A stretch of DNA of 64,000 nt from Rubritalea squalenifaciens DSM 18772 (GTDB lineage Bacteria; Verrucomicrobiota; Verrucomicrobiia; Verrucomicrobiales; Akkermansiaceae). Shown here one piece after another: positions 38,195-43,486 of this stretch. The position numbers and the translations under genes are program-made. The notes below the pieces were generated by a model. It was not told the origin of the DNA and ran no database searches. It saw only the letters and a program-made list of their open reading frames with translations. How positions within the stretch are numbered: position 1 is the first letter of the stretch; every line of letters begins with the position of its first letter. Location of the stretch: assembly GCF_900141815.1 (NCBI RefSeq), contig NZ_FQYR01000007.1:1-64000 (forward strand). Reading direction: 5' to 3'.

Positions 38195-40246
38195 TTATTC
38201 ATCCCCGTAGTACCCATACTCGCCATTGTACTCACCATAGCCCTTGTAGCCGTAGTAGCCTGATCCGGTGGACTTCTTGAGGCCGTTGATGACTACACCT
38301 GCTGGTGGTTTACCTGCAGACTTGAGCAAGTTGATGGAGCGTAAGACCGCCCCCACTGGGGCCTTGCGTGCACGCACCACCATCACGATGGACTGGGCAA
38401 ACTTCGCGAGCACTCGTGTATCCGAGACGGGTAAGATCGGTGCCGAATCGATCACGATGCGGTCAAAATTACCGGCCAGTCTGCTAAAGAGATCGTGAAG
38501 CTCTTCTTCATGAAGGAGTTCGGAGGGATTTGAGCACCTACCTCCAGAGCCCAAGAGATAAAGATTCTCCACGTGATTGAGCATCACGCAATCTTTTAAC
38601 TCAGCTTGGCCAGCTAAGACCTCGGTAACACCAGTTCTGTCCTTAAGTTCAGGGAACATGCCTTCCAAACGGGGTTTACGTAGATCCAAGCCCACCAGCA
38701 AGGTACGTTCTTTGTTCATCGCGAAGGAAGCGGCGAGTTCGGAGGCCACAGTGGTTTTTCCTTCACCAGGTATCGCACTCGTCACCAAGATCATTTTGTG
38801 GCGATGCTTTTGACCAAGCAGCACGATACTGGCACGCAAGTTACGGATCGCCTCTGCATTGGCCGAGTTCTTGTCTTTGATCAGTACAGGCTGCCACTCC
38901 TTACCCTTGCGCAGGAAGGTGCTGTGCATCGGCACGGCCGCCATGCAGCCGATGCCGGTGATTTCCTCCACCGAACGGACGTCGTAAATCTTGTAGTCAA
39001 TGACTCCAAGCAAGTAGGCGAGGCCAAAGCCCCCTACCGCTCCGAGAATGGATCCTCCTGCAAGATAGATGAGACGCAGGGAATCCTCAGTCAGTCCAAT
39101 GAAAGCGGACTGAATAATCTTGTACTCATCAATGCTTTCCTCGTCCGCAACATTCAGCTCAGTAAGACGCTCTGTTAGGCGATCATAGAGTTTCTGACCT
39201 TGCTCAATGCGTGCGTTCAGAAGATTCGCGCGAGTCGAGAGAGCATTCTGTGCGACGGCCAGCCATTCATCGGCAGCTTCGCCAGTGCTATCCTGCTCCT
39301 CAATAATCTTTTCATCGAGCTCCTGCAGCCGGTCCTTGTACTTCATCCAAAAGGCTTTCTCGCTCTCGGTGGAGGAGGCTCGGAGGATTTCGCGTCGAAA
39401 GCGCTTGTTGAGGTCCTTGTAGACTGTAGAGAACTGCACCAACTTGGGATGCTTCGATTTATAGCGCTGGCGTAAGCTGATTAGCTCAGCGCGAGCCACC
39501 TGGATCTGCTCACTCAGCTTGGTCGCAGCCACGTAGACCTGTACCGAATTCTGAGCCTCCTCAAGATCTACACGAGCATCTTCGGCTTCTTTCTTAATGG
39601 ACTGAAAAACAGCACTGGCCCCCCCACTCTTGCTACTTTCTTCCTCTTCCAAGAAGACTTTAAGAATCGTATCCGCGATCACACGAGCTGACTCGGAGTC
39701 AGGATGACTCACTTTCACGTCAATCAAGGAGGTATTGCGACGACCACTGATATTGACCCAAGATTTGGACATTTTGTCGACCAGATCAACGGTTTCCACC
39801 TGGGAAGCTGGAGTGAAGGCGAGATCTTGCTCGCTTCTCCAGTAGCGTGGTTTGAAGGAAAACTCCGGTGGCATCACCCGTTGCAGAGCCTGTACCTCAG
39901 GACTTTCTGCCACTTTGGCCAAGATAGCTGGTGACGTGAGCTTACTGGCAGTGGTGGCCAAAACAAGCTCTGGACTCAAGCGTTCCGTTTCTAACTCTTC
40001 GCCCATCACCTGACGCTGCTTGATGTCCACCTCAAGTACCGCAATGGCTTCGTTCTTGGTAGGCACAATGGACATATAATAGAGAGCGGCTGCATAGCCC
40101 AAGGCTCCAAAAATGAGCATCATCCACCAGCGAGACAGGGCTTGGCGTATACTGCCGCTTCCGAAACGGTTGGCGCTCTGTTGCTCTACTTGGGGTTCTG
40201 GGGAATCTTGAAGCTCGGCAAAGGGGTCGATATCCTCGTTATTCAT
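38195..40246 (-). CDS. Wzc-like polysaccharide co-polymerase/tyrosine autokinase (copy 1)
   Basis: Read from the ATG at 40246 (683 residues), which matches the start of the paralog; a TTG 12 bp upstream is in frame. Domains: an N-terminal membrane helix (about 42-62, WWMMLIFGALGYAAALYYM), a periplasmic Wzz-like domain with long coiled-coil helices (about 65-395), a second membrane helix (about 410-435), then a BY-kinase. Walker A is IPGEGKTT (about 490), Walker A' is LLVGLDLRKPRL and Walker B is RIVIDSAPILPVSD. The C terminus is a tyrosine cluster (GYYGYKGYGEYNGEYGYYGD). This protein controls chain length and drives polymer export by cycles of autophosphorylation. A close paralog lies 960 bp upstream. 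Confidence 0.95.
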   Translation of the reverse strand: MNNEDIDPFAELQDSPEPQVEQQSANRFGSGSIRQALSRWWMMLIFGALGYAAALYYMSIVPTKNEAIAVLEVDIKQRQVMGEELETERLSPELVLATTASKLTSPAILAKVAESPEVQALQRVMPPEFSFKPRYWRSEQDLAFTPASQVETVDLVDKMSKSWVNISGRRNTSLIDVKVSHPDSESARVIADTILKVFLEEEESSKSGGASAVFQSIKKEAEDARVDLEEAQNSVQVYVAATKLSEQIQVARAELISLRQRYKSKHPKLVQFSTVYKDLNKRFRREILRASSTESEKAFWMKYKDRLQELDEKIIEEQDSTGEAADEWLAVAQNALSTRANLLNARIEQGQKLYDRLTERLTELNVADEESIDEYKIIQSAFIGLTEDSLRLIYLAGGSILGAVGGFGLAYLLGVIDYKIYDVRSVEEITGIGCMAAVPMHSTFLRKGKEWQPVLIKDKNSANAEAIRNLRASIVLLGQKHRHKMILVTSAIPGEGKTTVASELAASFAMNKERTLLVGLDLRKPRLEGMFPELKDRTGVTEVLAGQAELKDCVMLNHVENLYLLGSGGRCSNPSELLHEEELHDLFSRLAGNFDRIVIDSAPILPVSDTRVLAKFAQSIVMVVRARKAPVGAVLRSINLLKSAGKPPAGVVINGLKKSTGSGYYGYKGYGEYNGEYGYYGDE

Positions 40247-40516
40247 GGGATTAAACAACTGTATAGAGTCAGTCGTTAGGAGTTTAGATTTTATATCGGC
40301 AATCTGAAAACAGTGATGCGGAGGGGCCTGCTTTCCATCGTACGCAGGGGGTTGTGGACGTCCTGACTCTACTTTGCCAGAACAAAAATCTTTATTACAA
40401 AGTTTTAATCTTTAAGATGAAAGAATCATTAAGCTAGCTATCAAAAAGGATCAATGAAGTTCATGGACCAGGTTCTCGCTGGTTGCCAGCTGACCCCTGC
40501 TCGGTGGTTCGGAAGC

Positions 40517-40544
40517 GTAGCTAGTAGGGAGTAGGAAGTAGCCT
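40517..40544. repeat. Degenerate 7-bp tandem repeat, four units
   Basis: Four consecutive heptamers read GTAGCTA, GTAGGGA, GTAGGAA and GTAGCCT. All start with GTAG. A perfect 8-bp hairpin (CTCTCCGG, GTTAA, CCGGAGAG; 40543-40563) begins at the last unit. Confidence 0.75.
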
Positions 40545-40608
40545 CTCCGGGTTAACCGGAGAGCATTGATTCATGCTAGGAGGATACTGACAACGTTAAG
40601 GAAGACCT

Positions 40609-40680
40609 CTCGCCACTCGCTAGTTACAACGCTTTATGGTGGGCTCTGGCCGTAGCGAGTAGCGGGTGGCTAGTAGCTGA
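40609..40680. repeat. Heptamer repeats in inverted and direct orientation
   Basis: On the plus strand 40653-40680 is TAGCGAG, TAGCGGG, TGGCTAG, TAGCTGA. On the minus strand 40622-40609 reads TAGCGAG, TGGCGAG. The two sets face each other and can pair into a stem around 30 bases. The direct set opens the duplicated block; a shorter form recurs in its second copy (GTAGCGGGTGGCCAGTAGCT at 41009-41028). Confidence 0.7.
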
Positions 40681-40847
40681 TGTAAAGTTCCTCCAGCAAT
40701 GGACTTAGTCACTCCCCTACTACATCCCGGTAAGGGCCACCCTCCTAAATAAAAAAGCTACCCCAAAGGGATCGCTTAGACAAAATTATCACGCTTGATT
40801 GCTCACTATTGACCTTTGACCAATGACAAGTCCATAGGACTTCATCT
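40630..40847. repeat. Duplicated intergenic block, copy A
   Basis: About 215 bp repeated downstream in order and orientation at 40986-41196. Both copies run from CGCTTTAT(G/A)GTGGGCTCTG through a CTCCAGC segment, a TACATCCCGG segment, a hairpin followed by a T-run on the minus strand, and a 7-bp repeat run (ATTGACC, TTTGACC, AATGACA at 40808-40828) to GACTTCATC. Copy A has extra heptamers near its start and several substitutions. Confidence 0.85.
40751..40776 (-). terminator. Degraded terminator hairpin in block A
   Basis: On the minus strand AGCGATCCC, TTT, GGGGTAGCT and then a T-run. It matches the intact hairpin of block B except for a change that breaks one pair near the stem base, so it should be weaker. 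Confidence 0.55.
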
Positions 40848-40878
40848 GTGGCTATAATGCATCAAGCAAGATTTCATC

Positions 40879-40906
40879 AGTAATTAGTAATCACGAATCA
40901 GTAATT
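40879..40906. repeat. Degenerate 7-bp tandem repeat AGTAATY, four units
   Basis: AGTAATT, AGTAATC, ACGAATC and AGTAATT in uninterrupted succession, between blocks A and B. It is followed by GCACCCATTCAGGGCGCTA, an altered version of the hairpin found at 41204-41220 next to the stop codon of wzc copy 2. Confidence 0.75.
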
Positions 40907-40985
40907 GCACCCATTCAGGGCGCTACCTACCGAACACACTCCGAAGGAACTAAATTTGACCTTAAGGGGAAATAGGGCACTGCTG

Positions 40986-41196
40986 CGCTTTATAGTGGGC
41001 TCTGGCCGTAGCGGGTGGCCAGTAGCTGATGTGGAGCTCCTCCAGCCATGGATTTAGTCCCTCCCCTATTACATCCCGGCACGGGCCATCCTCCCTGAAT
41101 AAAAAAGCGACCCCAAAGGGATCGCTTAGACAAAATCATCATGCTGGATGGCACACTATTGACCTTTGACCAATGACAAGTCCGCAGGACTTCATC
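40986..41196. repeat. Duplicated intergenic block, copy B
   Basis: Second copy of the block at 40630-40847. It contains the ATTGACC, TTTGACC, AATGACA heptamers at 41158-41178 and an intact terminator. It is followed by a perfect hairpin, GCACCCT-TTC-AGGGTGC (41204-41220), whose last base is the final base of the wzc copy 2 stop codon. Confidence 0.85.
41101..41126 (-). terminator. Rho-independent terminator downstream of wzc copy 2
   Basis: On the minus strand AGCGATCCC and GGGGTCGCT pair over 9 bp (one G-T wobble) around a TTT loop, followed by at least six T. It lies about 95 bp after the stop of the wzc-like gene ending at 41220 and should limit transcription into the second wzc copy. Confidence 0.8.
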
Positions 41197-41219
41197 AGTA
41201 ATCGCACCCTTTCAGGGTG

Positions 41220-43265
41220 CTAGTCTGAGTAATAACCTTCGGTGGCGTACTCACCATAGCCTTTGTAGCCGTAGTAGGTAGAACCACCGCTGACCTTGAG
41301 ACCGTTGATCACCACACCCACTGGCTTCTTGCCAGCATGGTCGAGCAATTGGATGGAGCGAAGCAGTGCTCCTACAGGAGCCTTACGGGAGCGCACCACG
41401 AGGACGACAGAGTCAACAAACTCGGTAAGCAGACGGGTATCGCAGACTGGGAGGAGCGGAGCCGAATCAATAATCACGCGCTCGTAGCGGCTTCTCAGAT
41501 CACCAAACAACTTCTCAAGCTCATCTTCATGCAATAGCTCTGAAGGATTCGGGCATTTGCCACCGGACGGCAGAACATCCAGATTATCGATCCCTGATGG
41601 GACGATACATTCATCGAGCGAGTTCTGGCCGGCAAGCACCTCGGTGAGACCGATCTTGTCATCAATGGATGGGAAGTAGGCGTTGAGGCGAGGCTTTCTG
41701 AGATCCATCCCCACCAGCAAGGTCTTTTCCTTATTCATGGCGAAGACCGAGGCTAGCTCGGCCGCCATGGTAGTCTTCCCTTCCCCAGGCTGGGCACTGG
41801 TCATCAGGAGGAATTTGTGACGGTCTTTTCTACCAAGCAAAACAATTGAGGCTCTCAGGTTACGGATGGCTTCCGCATTGGCTGAATGTGGCTCACGCTG
41901 CAAAATGGGTTTCCAGTTTCCTTTACGGGCAAAGCCTGAATCGGTTGGGACGGCTGCCATGCAGGTCAAACCAGTCGCCTCCTCGACGGAGCGAACATCG
42001 TAGATTTTGAAATCGATAACCCCCATCAGGTAGGCAAAGCCAAAGCCCACTGCAGCACCAAGAACCGTGCCCGCAGCCAAGTAAATCAAACGCAAAGAAT
42101 CCTCAGCCAGCCCGATGAAGGCAGACTGGACGATCTTGTAATCATCCACATTCTCTTCATCAGCCACGTCTAGCTCGGTCAGACGCTGGGTGAGCTTCTC
42201 ATAAAGCTGCTGACCCTGTGTAATTCGAGCGTTGAGCAAGTGAGCACGAGTCGCCAGGGCATTTTGGGCTATAGACAGCCATTCGTCTGAGGATTTCCCT
42301 AAATGATCATCCTCCTGCTTGATTTTGGCATCCAGCTGATCAAGTTGCTCACTGTACTTCAGCCAGAAGGCTTTTTCACTGGCCGTATTGGAAGCACGCT
42401 TAATCTCGATGCGGAAACGCTGATTCAAATCCTTGTAGACGGCGGTGAACTGGACGAGTTTCGGATGTTTGGATTTATAACGCTGCCGGAGATTAATCAA
42501 TTCAGCACGAGCCACCTGAATCTGTTCGCTCAACTTGGTGGCCGCGACATAGACCTGTAAAGAGTTCTGTGCCTCTTCGAGATCTTCGCGAGCCGCTTCC
42601 GCCTCCTGCTTCAGAGACTGAAATACGGCACTGGCACCACCACTCTTGGACTCTTCCTCCTGATCCATAAAGACTCGCAGGATGGTATCGGCAATGGTAC
42701 GAGCTGCCTCGGGATCAGGATGCTTGACCTTGATATCGATCAGAGAGGTATTTCGGCGGCCACTAATGCTCACCCACTCTTTTGCCATCATGTCGACGAT
42801 CTCGACGGTCTCTACCGCAGAAGCGGGCTTAAACTCCAGTTCATCTTCCGCACGCCAGTAGCGAGGCTTGAAGGAAAACTCGGGAGGAACGACACGCTGC
42901 AGGGCCTGAACTTCGGGGCTGTTGGCCACTTTAGCCAAAATGGCAGGTGAAGTCAGTTTGCTCGCCGTAGTCGCCAAAACCAACTCAGGAGACATACGAT
43001 CGGTCTCCAGCTCTTCCCCCATGACTTGGCGCTGCTTGATATCCACCTCAAGAACCGCCACAGCTTCTGTTTTTAGCGGCATGATGGACATGTAGTAGAG
43101 GGCTGCAGCGTAGCCCAAGCCACCAAAGACGAGCATCATCCACCAGCGAGATAGAGCCTGGCGAATACTGCCACTACCAAAACGGCTCACCACTACCTCA
43201 TCCATATCCCCTTTGCGCTCATTGCTGCTCTCCACATCGGCAAATGGATCAATATCGTTCTTCAT
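41220..43265 (-). CDS. Wzc-like polysaccharide co-polymerase/tyrosine autokinase (copy 2)
   Basis: A 681-residue paralog of the gene at 38195-40246; most residues are identical by eye over the whole length. It has the same layout: membrane helix at about 39-59, periplasmic Wzz-like coiled coil (SGRRNTSLIDIKVKHPDPEA, KLSEQIQVARAELINLRQRY), second membrane helix, then a kinase with Walker A QPGEGKTT, Walker A' LLVGMDLRKPRL, Walker B RVIIDSAPLLPVCD and a tyrosine tail (YYGYKGYGEYATEGYYSD). It lies 221 bp downstream of the Wza-like export gene, the natural partner order. The tail is shorter and has a different tyrosine spacing from copy 1, so the two may differ in phosphorylation control. Confidence 0.95.
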   Translation of the reverse strand: MKNDIDPFADVESSNERKGDMDEVVVSRFGSGSIRQALSRWWMMLVFGGLGYAAALYYMSIMPLKTEAVAVLEVDIKQRQVMGEELETDRMSPELVLATTASKLTSPAILAKVANSPEVQALQRVVPPEFSFKPRYWRAEDELEFKPASAVETVEIVDMMAKEWVSISGRRNTSLIDIKVKHPDPEAARTIADTILRVFMDQEEESKSGGASAVFQSLKQEAEAAREDLEEAQNSLQVYVAATKLSEQIQVARAELINLRQRYKSKHPKLVQFTAVYKDLNQRFRIEIKRASNTASEKAFWLKYSEQLDQLDAKIKQEDDHLGKSSDEWLSIAQNALATRAHLLNARITQGQQLYEKLTQRLTELDVADEENVDDYKIVQSAFIGLAEDSLRLIYLAAGTVLGAAVGFGFAYLMGVIDFKIYDVRSVEEATGLTCMAAVPTDSGFARKGNWKPILQREPHSANAEAIRNLRASIVLLGRKDRHKFLLMTSAQPGEGKTTMAAELASVFAMNKEKTLLVGMDLRKPRLNAYFPSIDDKIGLTEVLAGQNSLDECIVPSGIDNLDVLPSGGKCPNPSELLHEDELEKLFGDLRSRYERVIIDSAPLLPVCDTRLLTEFVDSVVLVVRSRKAPVGALLRSIQLLDHAGKKPVGVVINGLKVSGGSTYYGYKGYGEYATEGYYSD

Positions 43266-43298: not shown

Positions 43299-43332
43299 AG
43301 CTCAGAAACTTGTTAAGCTCAGAAACTTGTTA
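43299..43332. repeat. 17-bp perfect tandem duplication upstream of wzc copy 2
   Basis: AGCTCAGAAACTTGTTA occurs twice in direct succession, 34 bp before the wzc copy 2 ATG. Depending on transcription start it would double a stretch of the leader or a promoter-proximal site. Confidence 0.85.
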
Positions 43333-43486
43333 AAATCTTATCGAGGCCCTTAACACAGCAAATCACCAGATACAGTGAGAGCTGTCACTAAAGACACACA
43401 CGTTCTAGTCAGGTGCTGATTCATTTCAACGAAGAAAAACAAGAAGCTTCATGAATCAGCACTAAAAATAAGTAGGACTATAAATA

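What the first reader, a model, noticed from the sequence alone, without database searches (positions are those of the whole stretch)
40517..41178. Degenerate heptamer tandem repeats, resembling cyanobacterial STRR elements
At least four different runs have an exact 7-bp period: GTAGNNN (40517-40544), TAGCGAG-type (40653-40680, with an opposing set at 40609-40622), AGTAATY (40879-40906) and WTTGACC-type (40808-40828 and 41158-41178). The unit differs between runs but the period is constant. Short tandemly repeated heptamers like this are known from filamentous cyanobacteria; I do not know of them in this phylum. Their placement around hairpins and terminators between duplicated genes suggests a slippage or copy-based mechanism.
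Basis: partly seen in the sequence, partly recalled or inferred. Interest (0 to 1): 0.75.

Follow-up and report, generated by a model that had tools for sequence, protein, structure and literature searches.

The report
Hairpin-capped seven-base repeat cassettes
The short seven-base repeats in this gap between two genes are real; they belong to a family of small repeat elements, most often four seven-base units beside a DNA hairpin, that has multiplied mainly in one 220,000-base stretch of this bacterium's chromosome, apparently by copying whole blocks, with units now and then gained or lost seven bases at a time.

Summary
Observation confirmed: the 961-bp gap has three period-7 runs; shuffles average 0.003. 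They are the window's only ones.

They belong to a larger system. C2:280-500 kb holds 145 period-7 runs, against 4 in 330 kb sampled elsewhere. Several unrelated words occur. AGTAAT, GTAGC and TGAC arrays lie directly 5' of a hairpin (90 of 101); 49 of 90 CCCCGCAGGGG hairpins have a period-7 tract 5', five 3'. AACCATT arrays show no such cap. Length is usually four units; the window's two ~350-bp copies differ by exactly one unit in one array and three in another. TGAC arrays have four units in 45 of 51 cases over four congeneric species.

Bare heptamers are widespread in bacteria, so 'unknown in this phylum' fails. Among TGAC arrays, the hairpin cap was seen only in this genus: none of 24 readable arrays from other genomes of the order had one.

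Best reading: REP/STRR-like non-autonomous cassettes, spread by block copying, changed by whole units. The spreading agent and any function are unknown.

The parts
40517..40544 (+). GTAG heptamer array, 4 units (GTAGCTA GTAGGGA GTAGGAA GTAGCCT)
   Evidence: eleven C2 places match this part of the gap at 84-91% identity over 57-93 bp (12 of 44 candidates were scored)
40543..40563 (.). hairpin CTCTCCGG-GTTAA-CCGGAGAG abutting the array; in the island 19 of 20 hairpins of this type have a period-7 tract on the 5' side and none on the 3' side
   Evidence: sequence; island statistic
40608..40627 (-). opposing degenerate GTAG-type set; with the array above it resembles the island's inverted GTAGC dimer (15 pairs, starts 105-109 bp apart)
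   Evidence: the assignment to a dimer is inference
40652..40679 (+). GTAGC array, copy 1, 4 units
41008..41028 (+). GTAGC array, copy 2, 3 units: exactly one heptamer fewer than copy 1
   Evidence: (offset 356 to 349)
40807..40827 (+). TGAC heptamer array, copy 1, 3 units
40828..40842 (.). hairpin AAGTCC-ATA-GGACTT capping TGAC array 1
41157..41177 (+). TGAC heptamer array, copy 2, 3 units
41178..41192 (.). hairpin AAGTCC-GCA-GGACTT capping TGAC array 2
40879..40906 (+). AGTAAT array, copy 1, 4 units
40907..40923 (.). hairpin GCACCC-ATTCA-GGGCGC (one A-C mismatch) after array copy 1
   Evidence: read from the sequence printed
41197..41203 (+). AGTAAT array, copy 2, one unit only (three whole units fewer than copy 1)
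   Evidence: read from the sequence printed; the MAFFT alignment did not align this end
41204..41220 (.). hairpin GCACCC-TTTCA-GGGTGC (perfect stem) after array copy 2
   Evidence: read from the sequence printed
40841..40878 (+). two TTCATC motifs (40841, 40873) with 32 bp from one to the next; copy 2 has a single TTCATC (41191), so it lacks one such 32-bp step
40630..40923 (+). copy 1 of the ~350-bp imperfect tandem duplication
40986..41220 (+). copy 2 of the duplication

Best explanation
These are degenerate members of a lineage-specific family of small non-coding repeat cassettes that resemble REP elements in plan: often a short linker (TTYCATC..AGC..), then a tandem array of usually four heptamers, then (for most words) a hairpin, with fixed polarity. 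Several cassette types exist with their own heptamer word; three words (AGTAAT, YCTNNNN, GATTCT) occur in numbers on the same CCCCGCAGGGG hairpin. Shown: period, polarity for the main words, whole-unit steps, modularity, the island, and the four-unit TGAC cassette in congeneric species. Inferred: cassettes multiply mainly as whole blocks, by duplication and recombination between neighbouring modules and perhaps by an unknown transposition; unit number changes by whole units through slipped mispairing during replication. The window locus is an outpost of the C2 family. No cellular function beyond persistence is demonstrated; the prevalence of four units suggests some constraint on the ~28-nt tract.
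For: Island: 145 period-7 runs in C2:280-500 kb, 131 of them mostly outside ORFs of 100 aa or more, against 2 in the other 180 kb of C2 read and 4 in 330 kb of other stretches; periods 6 and 8 show no such excess. Polarity, array-centred (hairpin score of 8 or more within 35 bp, 3' against 5'): AGTAAT 40 against 16 of 45, GTAGC 38 against 2 of 43, TGACC 12 against 2 of 13. Polarity, hairpin-centred: 90 CCCCGCAGGGG hairpins oriented by their loop, 49 with a period-7 tract 5' and 5 with one 3'; 20 CTCCGG..CCGGAG hairpins, 19 against 0; 85 other CCCCNNAGGGG, 13 against 0; periods 6 and 8 zero throughout; ACCCCGGAGGGGT (51) and GACCC.AACG.GGGTC (37) zero on both sides. Whole-unit steps: AGTAAT arrays caught between linker and hairpin are 30 bp (17) or 23 bp (3); GTAGC arrays before the CCGG hairpin 28 bp in 16 of 21 and 21 bp in 2, and the three longer matches end in a normal four-unit array; window copies differ by one and by three units. 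Genus: TGAC arrays of four units in 32 of 38 (own island), 9 of 9 (G005), 3 of 3 (G002), 1 of 1 (G004). Stems of 5 bp or more follow 32 of 38 own TGAC arrays against 5.1% of 3,000 random island positions; 12 stem sequences occur, about seven after merging nested forms. Modularity: loose linker 95 times in 220 kb of island against 3 in 155 kb outside; 27 of 143 linker-bounded segments have a remote place where the same flanks meet without the segment, 0 in four unequal-shift controls.
Against: In the array-centred count AACCATT (1 of 8 with a 3' hairpin, 3 of 8 with a 5' one), CCTTT (4 against 5 of 10), unassigned runs (3 against 3 of 10) and, weakly, GATTCT (10 against 7 of 18) do not show the cap; for GATTCT the run often extends into the hairpin, so the count is low for a technical reason, for AACCATT I see no cap. 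26 of 90 CCCCGCAGGGG hairpins had no recognised word. The modulo-7 test uses anchors inside the array, so it mainly shows the absence of out-of-register indels. Equal-shift controls of the empty-site test gave 16, 27 and 36 of 143, so the joints cannot be placed exactly at the linker. In G005 only 1 of 9 TGAC hairpins has a stem of 5 bp or more (6 of 9 at 4 bp or more). The window's own TGAC arrays have three units. The TGAC counts need at least three units to be seen. No strain-level data exist, and block copies are not independent observations.
Confidence: 0.65

Rival explanations
1. Plain simple-sequence repeats made by polymerase slippage with a favoured 7-nt step (Mrazek's hypothesis as cited in PMC4679880 and PMC4692102); hairpins and clustering are incidental.
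For: Bare heptamer arrays are common outside the genus, 19 of 25 read having at most two distinct units; unit changes come in sevens; a long perfect array exists in the island (24 CAGTAGG units at C2:446534-446701).
Against: Polarity to hairpins; prevalence of four units in four species; unit-specific variants shared by many paralogues, e.g. CACC in unit 3 of AGTAAT arrays, which slippage should homogenise; most runs found lie in one 220-kb stretch. Period-9 arrays in the same island and period-8 arrays of the same word in 17 of 288 genomes of the order show that 7 is not the only step.
Confidence: 0.16
2. True REP elements moved by RAYT-type Y1 transposases, with the heptamer array as a reiterated GTAG-like tag recognised 5' of the hairpin.
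For: GTAG tag 5' of a hairpin and inverted dimers with tags outside are the REP plan (PMC3733652); 15 GTAGC dimers 105-109 bp apart; 9 Y1 matches in the genome, 7 of them on C2 at 238-656 kb, with REP-type hairpins beside those read.
Against: I read the flanks of seven of the nine (C2 at 238, 245, 322, 327 and 458 kb; C6; C9): none is bounded directly by heptamer arrays, although the two island copies (322, 327 kb) have arrays within about 200 bp beyond the flanking hairpins. The flanking hairpin types carry arrays in 0 of 51, 0 of 37 and 7 of 34 cases. Most words are not GTAG.
Confidence: 0.1
3. Regulatory RNA or protein-binding elements: spaced short cores plus a hairpin bound by an oligomeric regulator, as proposed for Geobacter and Beggiatoaceae heptamers.
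For: Conserved core with variable filler inside units and prevalence of four units in the genus; precedents proposed in PMC2700814 and PMC4679880.
Against: Concentration in one stretch and stacking of several cassette types in one gap fit mobile repeats better than a regulon; no Rfam match near gathering score in the window gap.
Confidence: 0.07

Closest known systems
Cyanobacterial STRR / heptanucleotide repeats (Calothrix, Nostoc); passages read in PMC4692102, the original papers not seen
   Same: tandem 7-bp units, degenerate, mostly intergenic, several words in Calothrix
   Different: here most arrays are hairpin-capped with fixed polarity, usually of four units, and concentrated in one 220-kb stretch
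Xanthomonas GGGAATC heptamer repeats (PMC4692102, section 10 and passages read)
   Same: heterogeneous units (GGGANTN)n, majority four units, 70 and 75 close inverted pairs in two species
   Different: one G-rich word, spread over the whole genome, 2-26 units; no hairpin cap described in the parts read
Geobacter metallireducens four-heptanucleotide elements (PMC2700814, passages read)
   Same: 49 dispersed copies of an element with four tandem heptamers; another class mostly with five
   Different: one word per class, intragenic as well, annotated there as putative regulatory elements
TAACTGA repeats of Beggiatoaceae (PMC4679880, abstract, introduction and passages read)
   Same: intergenic heptamer sets of 2-6; TTACTGA, a rotation of the reverse complement of the island word AGTAATC, differs from it by one base
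   Different: mostly just upstream of start codons; near-variants are rarely repeated there, whereas here many words coexist
GTAG-tagged REP elements, BIMEs and RAYTs (PMC3733652, abstract, sections 5, 7, 16 and passages read)
   Same: tag beside a hairpin, inverted dimers (20-100 bp apart in most), intergenic, present in the verrucomicrobium O. terrae
   Different: tag iterated at 7-bp steps, several unrelated tags, no matching transposase found

Membership tests
STRR / heptanucleotide simple repeats | tandem units with a 7-bp period above chance | tested here: met
STRR / heptanucleotide simple repeats | unit number changes in steps of 7 bp | tested here: met
   between copies within one genome only:
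STRR / heptanucleotide simple repeats | unit number differs between strains | not testable with these tools
   only one genome per species is held
STRR / heptanucleotide simple repeats | sequence identity with the Calothrix or Nostoc words | not tested
   the cyanobacterial words were not compared
GTAG REP element | GTAG tag adjoining a stem-loop, fixed polarity | tested here: met
   GTAGC cassettes only: 38 of 43 arrays with a 3' hairpin, 2 of 43 with a 5' one; 19 of 20 CTCCGG hairpins
GTAG REP element | a single terminal tag | tested here: not met
   tag iterated, usually four times
GTAG REP element | RAYT gene flanked by the same element | tested here: not met
   seven of nine Y1 genes inspected have other hairpins or repeats as flanks; two (C2:655 kb) were not read
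Integron cassette array (attC) | integron-type tyrosine integrase at the array | tested here: not met
   five PF00589 matches in the genome, four on C3 and one on C4, none on C2
Reverse-transcriptase-made repeats | RT gene near the arrays | tested here: not met
   one PF00078 match in the genome, on C3 (E 9.5e-6)

The most novel reading that the evidence does not exclude
A '4 x 7' rule: unrelated lineages (this genus, Xanthomonas, Geobacter) have each amplified dispersed elements of four tandem heptamers with unrelated words, which would mean that a widespread cellular process makes, measures or protects a 28-nt tract of four 7-nt steps irrespective of its sequence; in this genus the tract has been captured next to a hairpin and turned into exchangeable cassettes that share one hairpin but swap words.
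Probability: 0.12. Interest if true: 0.8.

Novelty: new variant of a known kind. Interest (0 to 1): 0.52.

Why it matters
Heptamers are described as the most abundant class of longer simple repeats in most of the genomes surveyed, yet they are little studied (introductions and passages of PMC4679880 and PMC4692102). This genus offers a natural experiment: one hairpin with different words, different words at the same four-unit length, and neighbouring duplicates that differ by a single unit. That makes it possible to separate slippage, block copying and selection on array length.

Tried and rejected
Superintegron: suggested by many short same-strand ORFs in the island; no PF00589 match on C2. 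RAYT mobilisation of the arrays: not supported. Template-driven synthesis by a reverse transcriptase: one match, on another contig. Known RNA family in the gap: best hit 19 bits against a gathering score of 80 (only window 40200-41300 searched). Viral vector: one 27-base island motif, 0 hits in viral contigs. tRNA-bounded island: one tRNA-Thr in the 14 stretches scanned, at C2:265.2 kb, about 1 kb before a masked stretch; not taken as proof. A covariance model was not built, because TGAC stems differ in length and did not align in register.

Controls that were not clean: the reversed-pattern control of the genome search is itself a heptamer word (CAGTNNN) and scored often in other genomes (for example G454 48 and 112, G024 15 and 45; six genomes), so it is no neutral background there; in the own genome it gave 1 against 33. 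A period-8 version of the TGAC pattern hit 17 of 288 genomes but 0 times in the own genome, against 36 of 288 and 33 for period 7. The CGCCC..GGGCG pattern has no orientation of its own, so its 7 against 7 says nothing. Equal-shift controls of the empty-site test were positive. Searches were literature listings used only for leads.

Full report
WHAT IS IN THE WINDOW. The gap 40259-41219 lies between two minus-strand genes whose products match AAA_31 and are 72% identical to each other; by size and context they look like Wzz/BY-kinase proteins (recall, no call names them so). Nearby genes match Poly_export/SLBB, Wzy_C, Epimerase and Polysacc_synt. At 15 of 21 matches it has three period-7 runs; 1,000 dinucleotide shuffles have a mean of 0.003 and none reaches three; lags 7, 14 and 21 are the three strongest of lags 2-60 (z 5.5, 4.3, 3.1; lag 4 follows at 2.9). 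The 64-kb window has only these three.

THE WINDOW'S INTERNAL DUPLICATION. The gap holds an imperfect ~350-bp tandem duplication. The offset between the copies changes from 356 to 349 inside the GTAGC array: copy 1 has four units and copy 2 three; a one-base indel further on makes it 350. The AGTAAT array has four units in copy 1 and one in copy 2, and copy 2 also lacks one 32-bp step between TTCATC motifs (read; the aligner did not resolve this end). So arrays change by whole heptamers, and a neighbouring module is missing between direct repeats. Loss or gain cannot be told apart.

RECURRENCE IN THE GENOME. The genome (4.32 Mb, 17 contigs) has 58 matches to AGTAATN x3 with up to two mismatches, against one for the reversed pattern: two in the window and 56 on C2, 54 of these at 292-487 kb and two at 595 kb. 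GTAGCNN x3 has 8 exact matches against 0, all on C2 at 303-429 kb. The window gap matches 12 C2 places between 321 and 441 kb, eleven at 84-91% identity over 57-93 bp and one 34-bp piece (12 of 44 candidates scored). I read C2:220-620 kb. In 280-500 kb there are 145 period-7 runs, in the other 180 kb 2 (two masked stretches, 7,983 and 1,280 bases). Seventeen further stretches (330 kb) give 4. Of the 145, 131 lie mostly outside ORFs of 100 aa or more.

ANATOMY. By word, the 147 runs of C2:220-620 kb fall into AGTAAT 45, GTAGC 43, GATTCT 18, TGACC 13, CCTTT 10, AACCATT 8 and 10 unassigned. A hairpin of score 8 or more within 35 bp lies on the 3' side of AGTAAT in 40, GTAGC in 38 and TGACC in 12 (5' side: 16, 2 and 2), of GATTCT in 10 of 18 (5': 7), CCTTT 4 of 10 (5': 5), AACCATT 1 of 8 (5': 3) and unassigned 3 of 10 (5': 3). 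So the cap is clear for three words, obscured for two and absent for AACCATT. To test polarity without using the array, I took the 90 CCCCGCAGGGG hairpins in the island and oriented them by their loop: 49 have a strong period-7 tract 5' and 5 have one 3'; periods 6 and 8 give none; 64 of 90 carry a recognisable word (AGTAAT 35, YCT/CTTTATC 14, GATTCT 11, TGACC 3 of which only one directly abuts, CACTG 1). CTCCGG..CCGGAG hairpins: 19 of 20 against 0; other CCCCNNAGGGG 13 of 85 against 0. Hairpins that look like ordinary REPs have none on either side (51 and 37), GAACCCC..GGGGTTC 7 of 34 against 0. A loose linker, TTYCATC..AGC, precedes many cassettes: 95 in the island against 3 in 155 kb outside; period-9 arrays (ATTCGTGNN 17, AATCTGTNN 6, TTCCGTGNN 6 of the 95) follow the same linker.

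LENGTH. The linker-to-hairpin pattern caught 20 AGTAAT arrays: 30 bp (17) or 23 bp (3), one class modulo 7; as its anchors lie inside the array, this mainly shows that no out-of-register indel occurred. GTAGC arrays before the CCGG hairpin are 28 bp in 16 of 21 matches and 21 bp in 2; the other three began at an upstream chance GTAG and end in a normal four-unit array. Fifteen GTAGC dimers have tags outside and starts 105-109 bp apart.

RELATIVES. A BLAST of an 871-bp island mosaic found 80 matches in the own genome and few, short ones in 15 of 38 relatives (11 in G005 of the genus, but also 11 in G024 and 9 in G028 of other genera), so parts of the mosaic occur more widely. In the congeners G002, G004 and G005 the TGAC cassette recurs with linker-like 5' flanks and a 3' hairpin, four units in 3 of 3, 1 of 1 and 9 of 9 arrays; in the own island 32 of 38 (five with three, one with five; arrays under three units are not counted; the window's two have three). 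These congener stretches were mostly chosen because they had hits. Stems of at least 5 bp follow 32 of 38 own arrays, 2 of 3, 1 of 1 and 1 of 9 (6 of 9 at 4 bp), against 5.1% of 3,000 random island positions; 12 stem sequences of that size occur in the own rows, about seven after merging nested forms. A fifth congener, G011, has a four-unit array with a 6-bp stem. Outside the genus I read one TGAC array from each of 25 genomes of the order (of 36 genomes with matches, 27 gave loci, two of them in the genus): none has such a stem, one had no 3' sequence to read, and 19 have at most two distinct units (4-39 units). The strict linker occurs 42 times in the own genome (40 on C2, 2 on C3) and 0-5 times in each of 57 relatives. 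So bare heptamers are common; for this word the cap was seen only in this genus, and the expansion is specific to this genome among those searched.

WIDER DISTRIBUTION. AGTAATN x3 occurs in 8 of 387 genomes of the phylum, own included; the loci that I printed show no abutting hairpin that I could see, two in G198 show an inverted array nearby. TGACYNN x4 occurs in 36 of 288 of the order, its period-8 counterpart in 17 of 288 but never in the own genome.

HOW IT PROBABLY WORKS. Block copying is shown indirectly: unit-specific variants (CACC in unit 3 of AGTAAT arrays) are shared by many paralogues, and 27 of 143 linker-bounded segments have a remote site where the same flanks meet without them; four unequal-shift controls give 0, but three equal-shift controls give 16, 27 and 36 of 143, so joints are located only to within about 20 bp. 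Whole-unit changes are shown. That slippage during replication causes them, favoured by the hairpin, is inference. The agent that spreads cassettes is unknown: the Y1 (REP-type) genes read are flanked by other hairpins or repeats (seven of nine), no integrase lies on C2 and the one reverse transcriptase match is on C3.

LITERATURE. PMC4692102 (one section and passages read) reports heterogeneous GGGANTN arrays, mostly of four units, with 70 and 75 close inverted pairs. PMC2700814 (passages) reports 49 elements with four tandem heptanucleotides in Geobacter metallireducens. PMC4679880 (abstract, introduction, passages) reports TAACTGA sets in Beggiatoaceae, Cyanobacteria and Bacteroidetes and cites the idea that 7 nt is the polymerase contact. 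PMC3733652 (abstract, three sections, passages) describes GTAG REPs and records them in the verrucomicrobium O. terrae. A full-text search for three heptamer terms with Verrucomicrobi- found 4 papers holding two or more terms, none holding Verrucomicrobi-; six example array sequences appear in no held paper. These searches cover open-licence PMC papers only. The original STRR papers were not seen.

VERDICT. Real, not chance, and larger than reported; a new variant (hairpin-capped, multi-word, island-amplified) of a known kind (dispersed heptamer repeats, REP-like elements).

Noticed in passing
C2:280-500 kb (loci L042-L052): The same island carries period-9 arrays (CACGAATNN, CACAGATTA and CCGTG types) behind the same linker; I noticed no hairpin cap on them but did not test it.
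   Followed up: partly
order relatives, e.g. G427, G436, G035, also G025, G521 and the congener G009: Octamer arrays of the same word (TTGACCTC, ATGACTCC and similar) occur in several related families: the same word with a different period.
   Followed up: no
C2:446534-446701 (L050): A perfect CAGTAGG array of 24 units just downstream of an ORF, unlike the usual four units.
   Followed up: no
C2:238449, 245212, 322348, 327325; C6:105634; C9:157: Y1 (IS200/REP-type) transposase genes flanked by inverted composite hairpins, REPtron-like, with two flank classes.
   Followed up: partly
C2:287624-290989 and C2:450285-456020: The island also holds a 1,121-aa Cas9-like protein near a masked stretch and a 1,911-aa RHS-repeat protein; 5 of the 6 small ORFs scanned had no Pfam match.
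   Followed up: no
C2:460-480 kb (L051): 31 ORFs of 100 aa or more, all on the plus strand, mean 159 aa; the two scanned had no family match. Possible gene array.
   Followed up: no
C2:458180-458480 (L050): Tandem blocks around CACGTATTAAAGAGACAGACAATTTAAGAGAAG upstream of a 360-aa protein with a partial Y1 domain.
   Followed up: no
window 43299-43333: A perfect 17-bp tandem duplication (AGCTCAGAAACTTGTTA) just upstream of the 41220-43265 gene.
   Followed up: no
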